64,000 nt of DNA, taken from assembly GCF_014077005.1 (NCBI RefSeq), contig NZ_JACGVC010000053.1, positions 434,001 through 498,000 of the forward strand, given 5' to 3'. Shown one piece after another: positions 1,468 through 45,888 of this stretch. Made by a program: the position numbers and the translations under genes. Each line of letters begins with the position of its first letter. Position 1 is the first letter of the stretch. The notes under the pieces were generated by a model, which was not told the origin of the DNA, did no database searches, and saw nothing but the letters and a program-made list of their open reading frames with translations. Origin of the DNA: Colwellia sp. MB3u-45. GTDB lineage: Bacteria > Pseudomonadota > Gammaproteobacteria > Enterobacterales > Alteromonadaceae.

Positions 1468-2787
<1,320 letters not shown>

Positions 2788-27727: not shown

Positions 27728-28049
27728 TGATATTAAACCCTAAGCATAGTGTGAATATTTAGCGAACTTTTTTTCTGCAATATACAGGGTCTACACGTCA
27801 TTTGATACAGTTGTGAATACTTTTGATGCGGTATATAAGTTAGCTAAAAGACAGTTATATATTTTCTATTAAACGAGCGTTTATTAATTTTATCGGCTGA
27901 GTCACAGGCCTAAAGCAGGGACAGTTTGATCTTAATTTCATTTTGTTGCGTATTTAGCTCTAGTTAAATAGATACTCGTTAGCTAGAGCTAAAAGTTAAT
28001 TCACCGTTCTGATGAATGGTTCTATAAGAAAAATAGGAGTGATTGAACA
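27728..28049. other. Divergent region, MHYT protein / HAD hydrolase
   Basis: The 322-bp gap carries the promoter of the rightward HAD-CIA30 pair (27927-27953) and, toward its left end, the unassigned promoter of the leftward MHYT gene. There is no open frame. Confidence 0.55.
27927..27953 (+). promoter_or_regulatory. ECF-sigma type promoter before HAD-CIA30
   Basis: TGATC at 27927-27931 and CGTAT at 27949-27953 are separated by exactly 17 nt, an exact match to the motif upstream of the ECF sigma/ChrR operon at 44520. The -10 element is 97 bp before the HAD start, farther than at the other sites. Confidence 0.7.
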
Positions 28050-31702: not shown

Positions 31703-31729
31703 ATACGTAATTAGCTGGGTTTACGATCA
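31703..31729 (-). promoter_or_regulatory. ECF-sigma type promoter before the flavin reductase-like gene
   Basis: On the minus strand TGATC (31725-31729) and CGTAT (31703-31707) are 17 nt apart, an exact match to the element before the ECF sigma gene. The -10 is 37 nt from the start codon. Confidence 0.78.
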
Positions 31730-41262: not shown

Positions 41263-41679
41263 CTAAGTACACCACAAGAGAACCGCAATAATATGCATTA
41301 TTACCACTAGCGTAGTCAGTTTCAGCCGCATGCGTAAATAAGACTTGTGTTCATTTTTAGCAGTATCAAAGTAGTATTCACAGCATAAAATCGCTGGGTA
41401 ACTCACCGCCAATATTACCAGTGCTAGATAGTTGGGTAATAACAGAGCAAAAAAAGCAAGTAAACTGAATATGTTACTGCAGAGCTGTAATTTAATACTT
41501 AATTTATCATTGTGCTTGCGCCACAGTGTGCCAGCAATAAAGCTTAAGATGATGGCGCTGTAAAATATAAATACCTGCTCGGCGGCGATATTTAATAATG
41601 TAGGACTGAACTTTTCAAATACCAGTGCGAGGACGAAGGGAGCTAATCCTAAATAACCTAAGATTTGTTGCATTTGCAT
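41263..41679 (-). CDS. DUF3429-family membrane protein
   Basis: A 138-residue integral membrane protein with about five hydrophobic helices. QQILGYLGLAPFVLALV and FYSAIILSFIAGTLWRK are typical of DUF3429, whose function is unknown. An exact ECF-type promoter lies on the minus strand with its -10 31 nt before the ATG. It is divergent from the DUF2878 gene, and proteins of both families recur around photolyase/ChrR clusters, which supports a place in the photo-oxidative stress response. Confidence 0.83.
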   Translation of the reverse strand: MQMQQILGYLGLAPFVLALVFEKFSPTLLNIAAEQVFIFYSAIILSFIAGTLWRKHNDKLSIKLQLCSNIFSLLAFFALLLPNYLALVILAVSYPAILCCEYYFDTAKNEHKSYLRMRLKLTTLVVIMHIIAVLLWCT

Positions 41680-41710
41680 AGTAAGATCTTTTCAATATTT
41701 ATTGTTCAGC

Positions 41711-41737
41711 ATACGAAATTTTTTAGCATATAGATCA
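41711..41737 (-). promoter_or_regulatory. ECF-sigma type promoter before the DUF3429 gene
   Basis: On the minus strand TGATC (41733-41737) and CGTAT (41711-41715) are exactly 17 nt apart. The -10 is 31 nt from the start codon. Confidence 0.78.
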
Positions 41738-42353: not shown

Positions 42354-42978
42354 TGTCAATCTTATGTCTACGCTTACACTATTAATTGGGCTATTTTCTT
42401 TCAATGCCCTAGCGAATAACCCGATTGAAAGTGTTACCCCTAGTGAAGTGGCAGTCGTCAGTGATGAAGGTTTGATGAAGTGTCAAGCTTCTGAACAAGT
42501 GTCTATTATCGCTAACGACTTAACAAAGTTGACTACCGAGCAGCACTTTACCTTATTGGGTAAAGCCAAGTTCTCAGTTTTGTTTTGGGATATTTATGAA
42601 AGCTCGTTATTCACTACCGATGGCCAACGACCCTTTAGTAACCTATGTCAGCATGCCTTGTTTGAAATACATTACTTACGCGACATCAGTAAAAAAGAAT
42701 TAATAGATAACACCGTATCGCAATGGCAACATTTATCGCTTAATGAAAATGAATATTTAGCTTTTTTGCCTTTACTAGAAAAAATATGGCGAGATATTAA
42801 TGCTGGAGATCGCTTGTCGATGTTAAGCCAAAAAGGTATAAGCGTATTCTATTTGAATAGGCAAAAAATAGGTGAAATTGAAAGTTTAACTTTTGCCAAA
42901 ACATTTCTTCGTATTTGGTTAGATGAAAACACCAGCGAGCCTAAACTACGACAACAGCTATTAGGGAATAATATATGA
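42343..42978 (+). CDS. Chalcone isomerase-like domain protein, exported
   Basis: A 211-residue protein with a signal peptide (cleavage after FNALA, about residue 24) and a chalcone isomerase-like domain: LLGKAKFSVLFWDIYESSLFT, ALFEIHYLRDISKKELI, ISVFYLNRQKIGEIESLTFAKTFLRIWLDENTS. In bacteria this fold is not a true flavonoid isomerase; fatty-acid binding has been proposed for plant relatives. It lies between DUF2878 and DUF3833 genes with overlaps of 11 and 4 bp. This set recurs next to ChrR/photolyase/CFA synthase genes in marine gammaproteobacteria, as I recall. Confidence 0.85.
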   Translation: MLVNVNLMSTLTLLIGLFSFNALANNPIESVTPSEVAVVSDEGLMKCQASEQVSIIANDLTKLTTEQHFTLLGKAKFSVLFWDIYESSLFTTDGQRPFSNLCQHALFEIHYLRDISKKELIDNTVSQWQHLSLNENEYLAFLPLLEKIWRDINAGDRLSMLSQKGISVFYLNRQKIGEIESLTFAKTFLRIWLDENTSEPKLRQQLLGNNI

Positions 42979-43526
42979 GTAAACATGCGAAATTGGCGGC
43001 ACTTTTTTGCTTAGTCTTTGTACTTTCAAGCTGTACAACAAAATTAGAAGATTATCAGGCTACTGCTCCTCAACTCGATATACAGCAATATTTTTCTGGC
43101 AAGTCGATAGCCTGGGGCATGGTACAAGATTACAGCAGTAAAGTGACTCGGCGTTTTTGTGTTGAGCTTGATGGCCAATGGCAAGGTGACGAAGGTGTGT
43201 TAAAAGAAGTATTTTACTTCGCTGATGGCGAAGTTACTTTTCGTAATTGGCAGCTAACCAAGTTAAAAGAAGGTAAATACTTGGGTAGTGCTGGAGATGT
43301 TGTTGGTAAAGCTGTCGGTCAACAAATGGGTTTTGCCTTTCAATGGCAATATGAGTTATTGGTACCAATAGACGGTGAAGAAGTGCAATTGTCACTTGAC
43401 GATTGGATGTATCGAATTGATGAGTACCGAGTATTTAACCGCACAAAAATGAAGAAATTTGGTGTTACTGTGGCTGAAATTACTTTATTTTTTGATAAAG
43501 AATTGCCGGTAAAAAGCTGTCAATAA
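42975..43526 (+). CDS. DUF3833-family lipoprotein
   Basis: A 183-residue lipoprotein with a lipobox LSSC (Cys20). The mature part matches DUF3833: LDIQQYFSGKSIAWGMVQDYSSK, FVE-type beta strands, and GQQMGFAFQWQYELLVPIDGEEV. It looks like a lipocalin-type beta barrel, so lipid handling at the outer membrane is possible, but the function is unknown. Its ATG overlaps the previous stop by 4 bp. The operon terminator is at 43590. Confidence 0.85.
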   Translation: MSKHAKLAALFCLVFVLSSCTTKLEDYQATAPQLDIQQYFSGKSIAWGMVQDYSSKVTRRFCVELDGQWQGDEGVLKEVFYFADGEVTFRNWQLTKLKEGKYLGSAGDVVGKAVGQQMGFAFQWQYELLVPIDGEEVQLSLDDWMYRIDEYRVFNRTKMKKFGVTVAEITLFFDKELPVKSCQ

Positions 43527-43589
43527 GGCCTTGAATTCATCGTTCTAGCTGGCATTGACTATCTGAACCAAATTACTGTCTGACCCTTT

Positions 43590-43611
43590 GCCCTTGTTAG
43601 GGCTTTTTTTT
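43590..43611 (+). terminator. Intrinsic terminator 1, end of the DUF2878 operon
   Basis: GCCCT-tgtt-AGGGC followed by eight Ts, 64 bp after the DUF3833 gene stop. This is the left end of the tandem repeat. Confidence 0.92.
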
Positions 43612-43622
43612 GCTGATTGCTG

Positions 43623-43649
43623 TGATCGTTTTTTGTTTTTACCACGTAT
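43623..43649 (+). promoter_or_regulatory. ECF-sigma type promoter, repeat copy 1
   Basis: TGATC (43623-43627), 17 nt, CGTAT (43645-43649). There is no gene before terminator 2; the transcript would be about 80 nt. Confidence 0.78.
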
Positions 43650-43655
43650 AACTCT

Positions 43656-43735
43656 TCAATATTGTTAAAGATTATTGCTTGTTGTATTTCCTGTTTGACT
43701 CTTTGCCCCTCTGACTCTTGATGGGGCTTTTTTTT
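43656..43735 (+). ncRNA. Candidate small RNA 1 (ECF-sigma controlled)
   Basis: Predicted from a promoter with -10 at 43645-43649 and an intrinsic terminator ending at 43735, with no open frame or ribosome-binding site between them. The 5' end is an estimate (about 7 nt after the -10). The RNA would start with a U/A-rich region and end in the GCCCC/GGGGC stem and U-run, the usual form of an Hfq-dependent small RNA. It is near-identical to the second candidate at 43780. Confidence 0.55.
43705..43735 (+). terminator. Intrinsic terminator 2 (repeat copy 2)
   Basis: GCCCC and GGGGC around a 13-nt loop, followed by eight Ts. Confidence 0.85.
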
Positions 43736-43746
43736 GCTCATTGCTG

Positions 43747-43773
43747 TGATCGTTTTTTGTTTTTACCACGTAT
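43747..43773 (+). promoter_or_regulatory. ECF-sigma type promoter, repeat copy 2
   Basis: TGATC (43747-43751), 17 nt, CGTAT (43769-43773), with a spacer identical to copy 1. Confidence 0.78.
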
Positions 43774-43779
43774 AAATCT

Positions 43780-43860
43780 TCAATATTATTAAAGATTATT
43801 GCTCGTTGTATTCCCTGTTTGACTCTTTGCCTCATCTGACTCTTGATGGGGCTTTTTTTT
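43780..43860 (+). ncRNA. Candidate small RNA 2 (ECF-sigma controlled)
   Basis: Same architecture as the candidate at 43656: promoter with -10 at 43769-43773, about 81 nt without an open frame, then terminator 3. It differs from the first copy at about six positions, several of them in the terminator stem, where one change keeps base pairing as G-U. Confidence 0.55.
43829..43860 (+). terminator. Intrinsic terminator 3 (repeat copy 3)
   Basis: GCCTCATC pairs with GATGGGGC (8 bp, one wobble) around an 8-nt loop, followed by eight Ts. Confidence 0.88.
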
Positions 43861-43871
43861 GCTCATTGCTT

Positions 43872-43898
43872 TGATCGTCTTTTGCTTTCAACACGTAT
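43872..43898 (+). promoter_or_regulatory. ECF-sigma type promoter, repeat copy 3, driving the LON-domain gene
   Basis: TGATC (43872-43876), 17 nt, CGTAT (43894-43898). The -10 is 38 nt before the ATG at 43937, with no terminator between. Confidence 0.78.
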
Positions 43899-43936
43899 AA
43901 CTAATATCAATCCATTAAGATTAGTTATTGTAAACT

Positions 43937-44503
43937 ATGCCAACTATTAATTTGCCTATTTTCCCATTGCCAATATTTTTGTTACCTCGAGGGGTAACTC
44001 GACTGCGTATTTTTGAAGCGCGTTATTTAAAAATGGTCTCGCTAGCAATGAAAAACCAAGGCTTTGTTATTTTTTCGCATGACAGAGATGAAAAAGCTAA
44101 ACCTATGTCAGTCGGCAGCTGGGTCGAAATTATTAACTTTGACCAAGGTGAAGACGGGGTATTACTGATTGACGTACGCTGTAAATGCTTAGTCGATATC
44201 AAGGCGATTACCCAAGACACTGATAAACTGCATCACGGCGTTGTCACCGCTAAAATCCATTGGCCTGATATCAGTCTAGATAAAACCACCGATAAACTGG
44301 CTAAGTCATTAGGTAAAGTTTTTATCGACAATGCTGAGTTAAATGCCTTATATCCAAAGCAACATTTTGATCAAGGCGATTGGGTGGTAGCGCGCTGGTT
44401 AGAATTGATACCGGTTAAACTTGCTGAAAAAAGTTTGTTTGTCGACAAAGATTCGTATAGCCAAGCGAAAGAACTGTTACAACGTATTATTTTATCTGAG
44501 TAG
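43937..44503 (+). CDS. LON substrate-binding (LonN) domain protein
   Basis: A 188-residue protein consisting of a stand-alone Lon N-terminal substrate-binding domain: LPIFPLPIFLLPRGVTRLRIFEARYLKMV, GVLLIDVRCKCLVDI and a C-terminal helical part with ERKLLQRIIL-like sequence. No ATPase or protease domain is present, as usual in this family; a cereblon-like adaptor role is possible. It has its own ECF-type promoter from the third repeat copy and sits directly before the sigma/anti-sigma genes. Confidence 0.85.
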   Translation: MPTINLPIFPLPIFLLPRGVTRLRIFEARYLKMVSLAMKNQGFVIFSHDRDEKAKPMSVGSWVEIINFDQGEDGVLLIDVRCKCLVDIKAITQDTDKLHHGVVTAKIHWPDISLDKTTDKLAKSLGKVFIDNAELNALYPKQHFDQGDWVVARWLELIPVKLAEKSLFVDKDSYSQAKELLQRIILSE

Positions 44504-44519
44504 AAAAGGTAAAATAATG

Positions 44520-44546
44520 TGATCTAGATCTATTTTTGTTGCGTAT
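44520..44546 (+). promoter_or_regulatory. ECF-sigma type promoter (autoregulatory) before the sigma/ChrR operon
   Basis: TGATC (44520-44524), 17 nt, CGTAT (44542-44546). The -10 is 33 nt from the sigma gene ATG. ECF sigma factors usually activate their own operon, so this site is the natural reference for the motif. Confidence 0.82.
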
Positions 44547-44579
44547 ATAAAAATATATGTCAAAAAATGGGTAAGAATT

Positions 44580-45206
44580 ATGCTGTCAGTGCATTCAGTG
44601 TTGCCAAGTCATAAGGCAAATGCTACATCTAATAACATGACTAATAAAATCAATCATCCAGAACTCTGTCAATGGCTGAAATCAATCGCTATTGATAGAG
44701 ACAAACAAGCATTTACTCAAGTGTTTAAGTTTTTTGCACCCAAAATACAGCGTATTGCGCAAAGTAAAATCAATAGTGAAGCACTCGCTGCAGAAGTTGT
44801 TCAAGACACTATGAGCAATGTCTGGCGCAAGGCGCACTTATTTGATGATAGTAAAGGGGCTGCTACTACTTGGGTTTATACTATCATGCGTAACGTTACC
44901 TTTGATCTATTACGTAAAATGAAAGCCAATAAAGAAGACAACCTCAGTGACGACATATGGCCGCTTGCTGAATTGGCAAACACTGAAGAAGAGGTGTTTA
45001 CTGACCATATTCAAAGTCGAAATTTACAAGGCATAATTGCCACGCTACCTGAAAACCAACAACAGGTAGTGAAAGGTTTCTATTTTATGGAAATGTCACA
45101 AGAGCAGCTTGCTGTTCATCTTGATTTACCACTTGGCACAATAAAATCACGACTTCGGCTTGCACTTGGCAAACTTAAGTTAAAAATAGGAGACCACAAT
45201 GATTAA
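44580..45206 (+). CDS. ECF sigma factor, ChrR-partnered (RpoE/ECF11 type)
   Basis: A 208-residue RNA polymerase sigma factor. Region 2 is about 35-105 (QAFTQVFKFFAPKIQRIA, EVVQDTMSNVWRKAHLFD, ATTWVYTIMRNVTFDLLR) and region 4 about 150-205 (IATLPENQQQVVKGFYFMEMSQEQLAVHLDLPLGTIKSRLR). The next gene, overlapping by 8 bp, is a ChrR-type zinc anti-sigma factor, placing this in the group that controls the singlet-oxygen response in Rhodobacter, Caulobacter and Vibrio. An in-frame ATG at 44637 (MTNKINH) is an alternative start closer to usual family length. Confidence 0.93.
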   Translation: MLSVHSVLPSHKANATSNNMTNKINHPELCQWLKSIAIDRDKQAFTQVFKFFAPKIQRIAQSKINSEALAAEVVQDTMSNVWRKAHLFDDSKGAATTWVYTIMRNVTFDLLRKMKANKEDNLSDDIWPLAELANTEEEVFTDHIQSRNLQGIIATLPENQQQVVKGFYFMEMSQEQLAVHLDLPLGTIKSRLRLALGKLKLKIGDHND

Positions 45207-45888
45207 ACACCACCCTAAATTTGAATTGTTACAAGGTTTTGTGGATGGTGACTTACCCGCTTCACTTGCTGCCGGTATAGCGATACATACTAACATGTGT
45301 GCTTCTTGCCAACAGAAAGTAAGCCAACTAACAGAACAAGTTGCAGAGGCCAGTTTTGAGCAGAGTTTTCATCATAAAGTTATTGTTAATGATGAGGAAA
45401 ACTTAACGGAAATCGCCGAAATGGACTTTGATGATATGATTAATCAGATTACCGCTTCTGATGACGTTGCACCAACAAAAGCCTTCTATGATGAACGTTC
45501 AATTAACTTTAAAGGTATGCAGTACACTTTACCCAGTGCCTTGCGCAATATTGAGTTAGGTAAAACTGCACAAATAGGTAAATTATCACGCGCACGGTTA
45601 AATTTAGGCGAAGGTGAAATTCATACTAATTTATTGCATATAGGGCCTGGGGGTTCGATACCTGAACACACCCATAAAGGTTTTGAGCTCACACTCTTAC
45701 TAGCTGGTACCTTTGCTGATGCACAAGGTCAATATGTGGCAGGCGATTTTATTATGCTTGATAAACGCGATCAGCATCAGCCAGCTACCGAAGATGGTTG
45801 TCTTTGTTATACCGTGGCTAATGATGCACTGCACTTTACCCAAGGTATAAATAAGTTACTGAACCCTATTGGTGCTTTCATTTACTAA
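45199..45888 (+). CDS. chrR: ChrR-type anti-sigma factor with cupin sensor domain
   Basis: A 229-residue zinc-binding anti-sigma factor. The N-terminal ZAS domain has His5 (or His4), His30, Cys34 and Cys37 in HTNMCASC, matching the ligand pattern of Rhodobacter ChrR. The C-terminal cupin (about 105-215) has the EHTHKGFELTLLLAG and DQHQPATEDGC motifs. It holds the sigma factor inactive until singlet oxygen or organic peroxides act through the cupin domain. It overlaps the sigma gene by 8 bp and is followed after 11 bp by the DUF523/DUF1722 gene. Confidence 0.93.
   Translation: MIKHHPKFELLQGFVDGDLPASLAAGIAIHTNMCASCQQKVSQLTEQVAEASFEQSFHHKVIVNDEENLTEIAEMDFDDMINQITASDDVAPTKAFYDERSINFKGMQYTLPSALRNIELGKTAQIGKLSRARLNLGEGEIHTNLLHIGPGGSIPEHTHKGFELTLLLAGTFADAQGQYVAGDFIMLDKRDQHQPATEDGCLCYTVANDALHFTQGINKLLNPIGAFIY

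What the first reader, a model, noticed from the sequence alone, without database searches (positions are those of the whole stretch)
43612..43860. Candidate tandem small RNA genes controlled by the ECF sigma factor
Inside the 124/125-bp tandem repeat the order is terminator 1, promoter 1, 80 nt, terminator 2, promoter 2, 81 nt, terminator 3, promoter 3, LON-domain gene. Promoters 1 and 2 each read into an intrinsic terminator without crossing an open frame, so they would give two near-identical RNAs of about 80 nt ending in a GC stem and U-run. Tandem homologous small RNAs occur in photo-oxidative stress responses of other bacteria (the CcsR group in Rhodobacter), though no sequence relation is claimed. 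I know of no description of this arrangement next to an ECF sigma/ChrR locus.
Basis: partly seen in the sequence, partly recalled or inferred. Interest (0 to 1): 0.85.

Follow-up and report, generated by a model that had tools for sequence, protein, structure and literature searches.

The report
Stress-switched tandem small-RNA genes
Next to a light-stress sigma factor, this marine bacterium carries two near-identical tiny genes that each should make a ~78-letter RNA and no protein; relatives carry from none to at least seven copies, which suggests a stress-triggered regulatory RNA whose dose evolves by copy number.

Summary
Between a DUF3833 gene and a LON-domain gene lie terminator 1, promoter 1, terminator 2, promoter 2, terminator 3, promoter 3 in a 124/125-bp repeat. 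All three promoters are TGATC-N17-CGTAT, the published RpoE2/ChrR type of Shewanella; the same box precedes this sigma factor gene and, elsewhere in the genome, RpoH, DASH-cryptochrome, catalase and glutathione peroxidase genes. Promoters 1 and 2 should give two noncoding RNAs of about 78-79 nt. New here: 9 of the 16 genus genomes with the LON gene carry at least one such unit, including all 8 of one clade. Copy number is 1, 2, 6 or at least 7 (9 as read on two contig ends). In one unit per species, the promoter boxes are invariant while spacer and leader diverge; three of nine units in the largest array have weakened boxes. Another genus has its own arrays of 2 and 3 larger units at the same place. 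Best reading: ECF11-controlled, probably Hfq-dependent sibling sRNAs. Expression, Hfq binding and targets are unshown; my target searches found nothing above control.

The parts
43576..43611 (+). Terminator 1 (43590-43611) with its upstream core (CTGTCTGACCCTTTGCC, 43576-43592); follows the DUF3833 gene
43623..43649 (+). Promoter 1, TGATC-N17-CGTAT, ECF11/ChrR type
   Evidence: consensus in PMC4336711
43658..43735 (+). Candidate small RNA 1, about 78 nt (5' end inferred)
43691..43707 (+). Core of RNA 1 (CTGTTTGACTCTTTGCC), the candidate seed, running into the terminator stem
43705..43735 (+). Terminator 2 (GCCCC/GGGGC stem and 8 T)
43747..43773 (+). Promoter 2, identical in sequence to promoter 1
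43782..43860 (+). Candidate small RNA 2, about 79 nt (5' end inferred)
43815..43831 (+). Core of RNA 2 (CTGTTTGACTCTTTGCC)
43829..43860 (+). Terminator 3
43872..43898 (+). Promoter 3, promoter of the LON-domain gene; such a box is present in 16 of 16 genus genomes that have the gene
43937..44503 (+). LON substrate-binding-domain gene (PF02190); Pfam shows no protease domain
44520..44546 (+). Promoter of the sigma factor gene itself (autoregulation inferred)
44580..45206 (+). ECF sigma factor; best solved relative is Rhodobacter RpoE (2q1z_A, E 1.2e-31)
45199..45888 (+). ChrR anti-sigma factor (TIGR02451, above cut-off)
42975..43526 (+). DUF3833 gene upstream of the array

Best explanation
The repeat is a small array of sibling small-RNA genes in the regulon of the neighbouring RpoE/ChrR (ECF11) sigma factor. 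When ChrR lets the sigma factor go (singlet oxygen or peroxide, from known biology of the family), P1 and P2 each start a noncoding transcript of about 78 nt that stops at its own terminator; P3 makes the LON-domain mRNA. The RNAs most likely act in trans with Hfq: a U-rich body with a core (CUGUUUGACUCUUUGCC) and a U8 tail pairs with mRNAs, possibly over Shine-Dalgarno-like AAAGA/AAAGG, and lowers their translation. This would be the repressing arm of a sigma factor that can itself only activate. Copies add up to set the dose. Shown from sequence: promoters, terminators, conservation, copy-number change. Inferred: transcription under stress, Hfq binding, targets, dose effect.
For: Promoter type: published RpoE2 boxes TGATCC/CGTATT, with a LON-domain gene (SO_1987) in that regulon (PMC4336711). 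In the own genome the exact pattern has 17 sites against 7 for the reversed control, among them sites in front of catalase, glutathione peroxidase, DASH cryptochrome, RpoH, flavin reductase and DUF3429 genes. Conservation: in a LON+ECF FastTree of 21 genomes a clade of 8 (support 0.992) all carry at least one unit. In one unit per lineage the -35/-10 columns vary in 0 of 10, the spacer in 10 of 15 (p 0.001) and the leader in 22 of 23 (p 1e-7). Terminator stem: each of 5 pairs forms in 21-23 of 23 chosen terminators, with one compensatory C-G to U-A change in 5. Tandem promoters at this spacing occur in 4 of 395 family genomes, each time at this locus, 0 for the reversed control. Copies in one genome are more alike (means 0.92-0.97) than between genomes (means 0.82-0.87). 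Hfq is encoded. No conserved peptide.
Against: No expression data were available. Anti-core matches in the own genome outside the array (11) equal the reversed control (11); by my ORF script four of the 11 lie within 80 nt of an ORF start, none convincing. In a duplex scan of 54 leaders (51 in the window, 3 elsewhere), the best z was -2.98, chrR ranked 7th (-1.69), rpoH 34th, ECF 36th, LON 43rd. The RNA body diverges between lineages; only the 3' part aligns by eye. The core also stands before terminators in genomes with no unit, so it may belong to the terminator rather than be a seed. The invariance test used units picked with intact boxes: three of nine G154 units as read have weakened boxes, and one G153 unit has a short spacer. 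No unit was recognised in 7 of 16 genus genomes with the LON gene. By the control, several of the 17 own-genome boxes are expected by chance.
Confidence: 0.6

Rival explanations
1. Attenuator or insulator: the terminators serve to stop read-through from the DUF3833 side into LON, and the short RNAs are by-products of duplicated terminator-promoter cassettes without a function of their own.
For: Terminator followed by LON promoter is also the arrangement in the seven genus genomes without a recognised unit. In 16 of 16 genus genomes with LON the gene has its own ECF-type box. In G143 the unit leader is a clear copy of its LON leader (0 of 500 shuffles as similar), as a simple duplication would give. 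Three of nine G154 units as read have weakened boxes.
Against: A by-product promoter should decay, yet every species of the 8-member clade keeps at least one intact unit while spacer and leader change. Insulation needs one terminator, not six or more.
Confidence: 0.2
2. Sigma-factor sink: extra promoter copies bind sigma-factor holoenzyme and damp or time the response; the RNA itself does not matter.
For: Near-identical promoters in tandem; copy number changes while the RNA body diverges.
Against: A handful of sites is few against likely polymerase numbers (inference); terminators and, mostly, the core are kept as well.
Confidence: 0.06
3. Small-protein genes: each unit encodes a short peptide, as the RpoE-dependent Pos19 RNA of Rhodobacter does.
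For: A TTG frame of about 19 codons is present in G000 unit 1, in all four G153 units examined and in six of eight G154 units examined. Pos19 is a coding sRNA (abstract).
Against: Start codon lost in unit 2 of the window; no ribosome site obvious by eye; no shared peptide in the five single-unit species of the clade.
Confidence: 0.05
4. Neutral tandem repeat: slippage copies without selection.
For: Copies within one species are alike; G153 has 157-bp inserted elements in two of its six units; weakened boxes in some G154 units.
Against: Unit present in 8 of 8 species of a clade with LON identities to the window's down to about 70%; invariant boxes in one unit per species; separate arrays in another genus.
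Confidence: 0.09

Closest known systems
Pos19 (Rhodobacter sphaeroides, RpoE-dependent sRNA)
   Same: Small RNA in the regulon of the same sigma/anti-sigma family; Hfq-dependent there (abstract read).
   Different: 219 nt, carries a translated 150-nt frame (abstract); single copy (recalled). No sequence comparison was made.
CcsR1-4 (Rhodobacter sphaeroides)
   Same: Several homologous sRNAs linked to photo-oxidative stress.
   Different: Processed with RNase E from a precursor shared with ccaF1 (passages read), under RpoHI/RpoHII (recalled); here each unit has its own ECF-type promoter and terminator.
Brt1-9 of Bartonella henselae
   Same: Multicopy sRNAs with a 3' hairpin just before a protein gene (passages of a review read).
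   Different: Brt1 acts as an attenuator for a trp gene apparently without its own promoter; here the LON gene has its own promoter. Not under an ECF sigma factor as far as I know (recalled).
MicA/RybB/VrrA-type sRNAs of sigma-E (Enterobacteria, Vibrio)
   Same: An ECF sigma factor gains a repressing arm through short Hfq-dependent sRNAs (recalled, no call).
   Different: Different sigma factor (envelope-stress RpoE, GAACTT-type promoter), scattered single genes (recalled).
AbcR1/2, LhrC1-5, PrrF1/2 sibling sRNAs
   Same: Tandem near-identical sRNA genes (AbcR: start of abstract seen in listing; others recalled).
   Different: Other regulators and lineages (recalled); I know of no copy-number change of this speed between sister species there.

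Membership tests
ECF11 (RpoE/ChrR) regulon member | Promoter with TGATC(C) -35 and CGTAT/CGTAA -10 at 16-17 nt | tested here: met
   published promoters
ECF11 (RpoE/ChrR) regulon member | Cognate sigma and ChrR encoded in the genome | tested here: met
ECF11 (RpoE/ChrR) regulon member | Transcription lost without the sigma factor | not testable with these tools
   no expression data
Bacterial trans-acting sRNA (Hfq type) | Own promoter and intrinsic terminator with U-run, 50-200 nt | tested here: met
   (sequence features; 5' ends inferred)
Bacterial trans-acting sRNA (Hfq type) | No conserved open frame | tested here: met
Bacterial trans-acting sRNA (Hfq type) | Conserved single-stranded seed | tested here: inconclusive
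   core mostly conserved but also before terminators without a unit; partly paired in several folds
Bacterial trans-acting sRNA (Hfq type) | Target mRNAs with complementary sites | tested here: inconclusive
   no excess over control; whole-genome target prediction was not run
Bacterial trans-acting sRNA (Hfq type) | Binds Hfq | not testable with these tools
   only the presence of an hfq gene shown
CcsR | Processed from a precursor with ccaF1 rather than made from a promoter per unit | tested here: not met
   each unit has a promoter-like box; CcsR facts from passages
Any Rfam family | Match above the gathering score | tested here: not met
   14 matches up to E 10 in 43400-44700, none at its gathering score
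Brt-type attenuator | Downstream gene lacks its own promoter | tested here: not met
   P3 at 43872-43898

The most novel reading that the evidence does not exclude
The spot before the LON gene is a repeated birthplace of ECF11-driven small RNAs: duplication of a terminator-promoter cassette makes an RNA gene in one step, and the array then grows and shrinks (1, 2, 6, at least 7 copies in related species), so copy number works as an evolutionary dial for the repressing arm of the singlet-oxygen response in these marine bacteria. Three origins are suggested by the data: the 8-species clade, G143, and the other genus.
Probability: 0.35. Interest if true: 0.78.

Novelty: new variant of a known kind. 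Interest (0 to 1): 0.62.

Why it matters
ECF11/ChrR is the model singlet-oxygen sensor, but in the one gammaproteobacterial regulon paper whose passages I read (PMC4336711) only protein-coding targets appear. A conserved RNA arm of variable dose would make it directly testable how an activator-only sigma factor represses, and would give a natural series of species (0, 1, 2, 6, at least 7 copies) to measure how sRNA dose evolves. The step from a terminator-promoter cassette to an sRNA gene would also be a simple route for de novo sRNA birth.

Tried and rejected
Rfam: nothing at gathering score; weak hits of TarA, NsiR1 and Spot 42 in the array (E 0.8-7) and the best hit of all, COG3860 RNA inside the LON gene (E 0.045, 20.8 bits against 42.5), are taken as chance. 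Family-wide nucleotide search with one unit: only 3 of 147 genomes matched (own, G091, G040), because the RNA body diverges, so I went through the LON gene instead. Peptide hypothesis: rejected. LON-leader mimic: supported in G143 (0 of 500 shuffles), weak in G153 (15) and G000 (34), absent in the other six of nine genomes tested; rejected as a general rule. Target search by anti-core: no excess. Duplex scan limited to 54 leaders: no convincing target. Tandem promoters elsewhere in the order: only the window's genome of 247 sampled. Wider spacing in the family: 2 of 196 genomes, G130 (the other-genus array) and G124, whose first box lies in a coding stretch resembling DUF3833 and which I judge chance. 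Plasmid collection: no match. Dropped or cut rows: two rows ran on past their terminator (G154a_2, G143); G154a_2 was cut, and a contig-cut sixth unit on contig C36 of G154 was left out of the alignments; the two interrupted G153 units were not aligned; repeat copies were reduced to representatives. One search stopped with an error after printing its statistics and eight of nine folds; only what it printed is used. G119 has no LON match and was not pursued. Count mended on re-reading: the last two units on C36 of G154 differ by two bases each from the first two on C26, so they could be the same units; I now say at least 7, and 9 as read.

Full report
What is there. Between the end of a DUF3833 gene (42975-43526) and a gene for a lone LON substrate-binding domain (43937-44503; PF02190) lies a 124/125-bp tandem repeat. 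Read on the + strand it is T1 (43590-43611), P1 (43623-43649), RNA 1 (about 43658-43735, ending in T2), P2 (43747-43773), RNA 2 (about 43782-43860, ending in T3), P3 (43872-43898), then the LON gene. The window holds 7 TGATC-N16/17-CGTAT sites against a mean of 0.24 (maximum 2) in 100 Markov resamplings.

The promoters belong to the ECF/ChrR sigma factor. The gene after LON is an ECF sigma factor whose best solved relative is Rhodobacter RpoE (2q1z_A, E 1.2e-31), followed by a ChrR-family anti-sigma factor (TIGR02451 above cut-off; 2z2s_B). In Shewanella oneidensis the RpoE2/ChrR promoter is TGATCC/CGTATT, with SO_1987, a LON-domain gene, in the regulon described there (passages of PMC4336711). 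In the window's own genome the exact pattern has 17 sites against 7 for the reversed control, so a part of the 17 may be chance. Four are in this cluster. Of the other 13, seven stand before an ORF: catalase, glutathione peroxidase, DASH cryptochrome, RpoH, a HAD hydrolase, a flavin reductase and DUF3429. Four lie inside ORFs (one of these antisense), and two had no ORF that my script recognised. The motif thus picks out an oxidative- and light-stress gene set. The starts of transcription at 43658/43782 are inferred from it.

The transcripts. Folded alone, RNA 1 gives -16.1 kcal/mol (6 of 200 shuffles as good) and RNA 2 -14.7 (9 of 200). Both end in a GC hairpin and eight T. The longest frames are TTG frames of about 19 codons whose start is lost in unit 2 and which have no counterpart in the five single-unit species of the clade, so the RNAs are most likely noncoding. 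No Rfam family reaches its gathering score. The genome encodes Hfq.

Relatives. The LON gene was found in 119 of 147 sampled family genomes and 16 of 17 genus genomes. All 16 have a TGATC-N16/17-CGTAT box before LON and another before the sigma factor gene. Nine of the 16 have at least one extra promoter-RNA-terminator unit upstream of the LON promoter: this genome (2); G153, the same locus as Colwellia sp. C1TZA3 (6, of which two hold a 157-bp inserted element with inverted ends, and one of these two also has a shortened promoter spacer); G154, the same locus as Colwellia sp. MB02u-6 (9 as read on two contig ends, six on C36 with the last one cut and three on C26; at least 7 if the ends overlap); G155, G148, G151, G152, G150 and G143 (1 each). 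No unit was recognised in seven: G091, G007, G056, G149, G157, G156, G147. On a LON+ECF FastTree of 21 genomes, eight of the nine carriers form one clade (support 0.992) in which every member carries a unit; G143 lies elsewhere, and its unit leader is a copy of its own LON leader (0 of 500 shuffles), so it probably arose separately.

Another genus. G069 (the locus of Colwellia hornerae ACAM 607) and G130 carry 2 and 3 units of about 175 bp before LON, with RNAs of about 120 nt whose body I could not relate by eye to those here; the third unit of G130 lacks a clear terminator. G161 of that genus is cut by its contig end but shows a similar 3' end before LON. The strict tandem pattern with short spacing was found in 4 of 395 family genomes, each time at this locus, with 0 for the reversed control; with longer spacing in 2 of 196, one of which I judge chance; and in the order sample only in the window's genome of 247. 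The strict pattern misses units with 16-nt spacers or other distances, so these are lower bounds.

Selection. With one unit per lineage for the eight lineages of the clade, the ten -35/-10 columns do not vary, while 10 of 15 spacer columns (p 0.001) and 22 of 23 leader columns (p 1e-7) do. This counts columns on related sequences without correction for the tree, the units were found through these boxes, and for the arrays a unit with intact boxes was chosen: three of nine G154 units as read have weakened boxes and one G153 unit a short spacer. Still, all eight genomes of the clade keep at least one intact unit. In an alignment of 23 chosen terminators from the 16 genomes, the stem is kept, with one C-G to U-A compensatory change in five sequences of related species. 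Before the stem runs a core close to CTGTGTGACCCTTTGCC, recognisable in most rows, also in genomes without a unit, but weak in G157 and in terminator 1 of G143. It therefore predates the RNA genes, and may be part of the terminator or a seed taken over by them. In the arrays of G000, G153 and G154, units of one genome are on average more alike (means 0.92-0.97) than units of different genomes (means 0.82-0.87), though single G154 pairs go down to 0.86; this means recent expansion or gene conversion.

How it most likely works. The sigma factor, freed from ChrR, activates P1, P2 and P3 together. P1 and P2 give short RNAs that end before the next promoter. With Hfq they would act in trans on mRNAs, giving the sigma factor a repressing arm, and extra copies would raise the dose. 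I could not show a target: anti-core matches outside the array (11) equal the reversed control (11), and a duplex scan over 54 leaders gave nothing convincing. Rivals are an insulator/attenuator with by-product RNAs, a sigma-factor sink, small peptides, and neutral slippage; retention of an intact unit through a whole clade speaks most against the neutral and by-product readings.

What is known. An RpoE-dependent sRNA exists in Rhodobacter (Pos19, abstract), and four homologous CcsR sRNAs are made from a precursor there (passages of PMC8307010). Multicopy sRNAs in front of genes exist in Bartonella (Brt, passages of the review PMC8070961). My literature searches found no description of this arrangement: sRNA with singlet oxygen, ChrR and ECF sigma factor gave 7 papers, none on this arrangement as judged from titles and starts of abstracts; tandem or homologous sRNAs with alternative sigma factors (5 of 6 terms) 3 papers, none on it by the same view; Colwellia with small RNA, sigma factor and terminator 0; ChrR, sRNA, Vibrio, photolyase, singlet oxygen (4 of 5 terms) 13 papers, none of the 12 listed on a gammaproteobacterial ChrR-dependent sRNA by title and start of abstract; tandem array, sRNA genes, copy number variation, intrinsic terminator (4 of 5 terms) 0; Colwellia with ECF sigma and ChrR 0. 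The library lacks most subscription papers. I file it as a new variant of a known kind: tandem sibling sRNA genes, here under an ECF11 sigma factor, with unusually labile copy number.

Noticed in passing
window 41263-41737 (-): An exact ECF-type box (TGATC-N17-CGTAT, starting at 41737 on the minus strand) ends 31 bp before a DUF3429 gene (41263-41679), a likely further regulon member.
   Followed up: partly
L100 (own genome C53:104040-104066): An exact ECF-type box ends 90 bp before rpoH (TIGR02392), which would mirror the RpoE to RpoHII cascade of Rhodobacter in a gammaproteobacterium.
   Followed up: partly
L094 (own genome C35:78891-78917): An exact ECF-type box ends 71 bp before a glutathione peroxidase gene, parallel to the RpoE2-dependent pgpD of Shewanella.
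   Followed up: partly
L079, minus strand, 1866-2022 and 2427-2583 (reverse-complement coordinates): Two copies of a 157-bp element with 18-bp near-matching inverted ends are inserted in two units of the G153 array.
   Followed up: partly
L085 and L086: The G154 array shows a recurring order of unit types, and the units of one type have weakened promoter boxes.
   Followed up: no
L081 and L082, minus strand, before LON: The about 120-nt RNAs of the other genus begin at or near an ATG with a short frame of roughly 14-18 codons by eye; coding not tested.
   Followed up: no
window 27927-27953 (+) and 31703-31729 (-): Two more exact ECF-type boxes stand before a HAD-hydrolase gene and a flavin-reductase-like gene.
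   Followed up: partly
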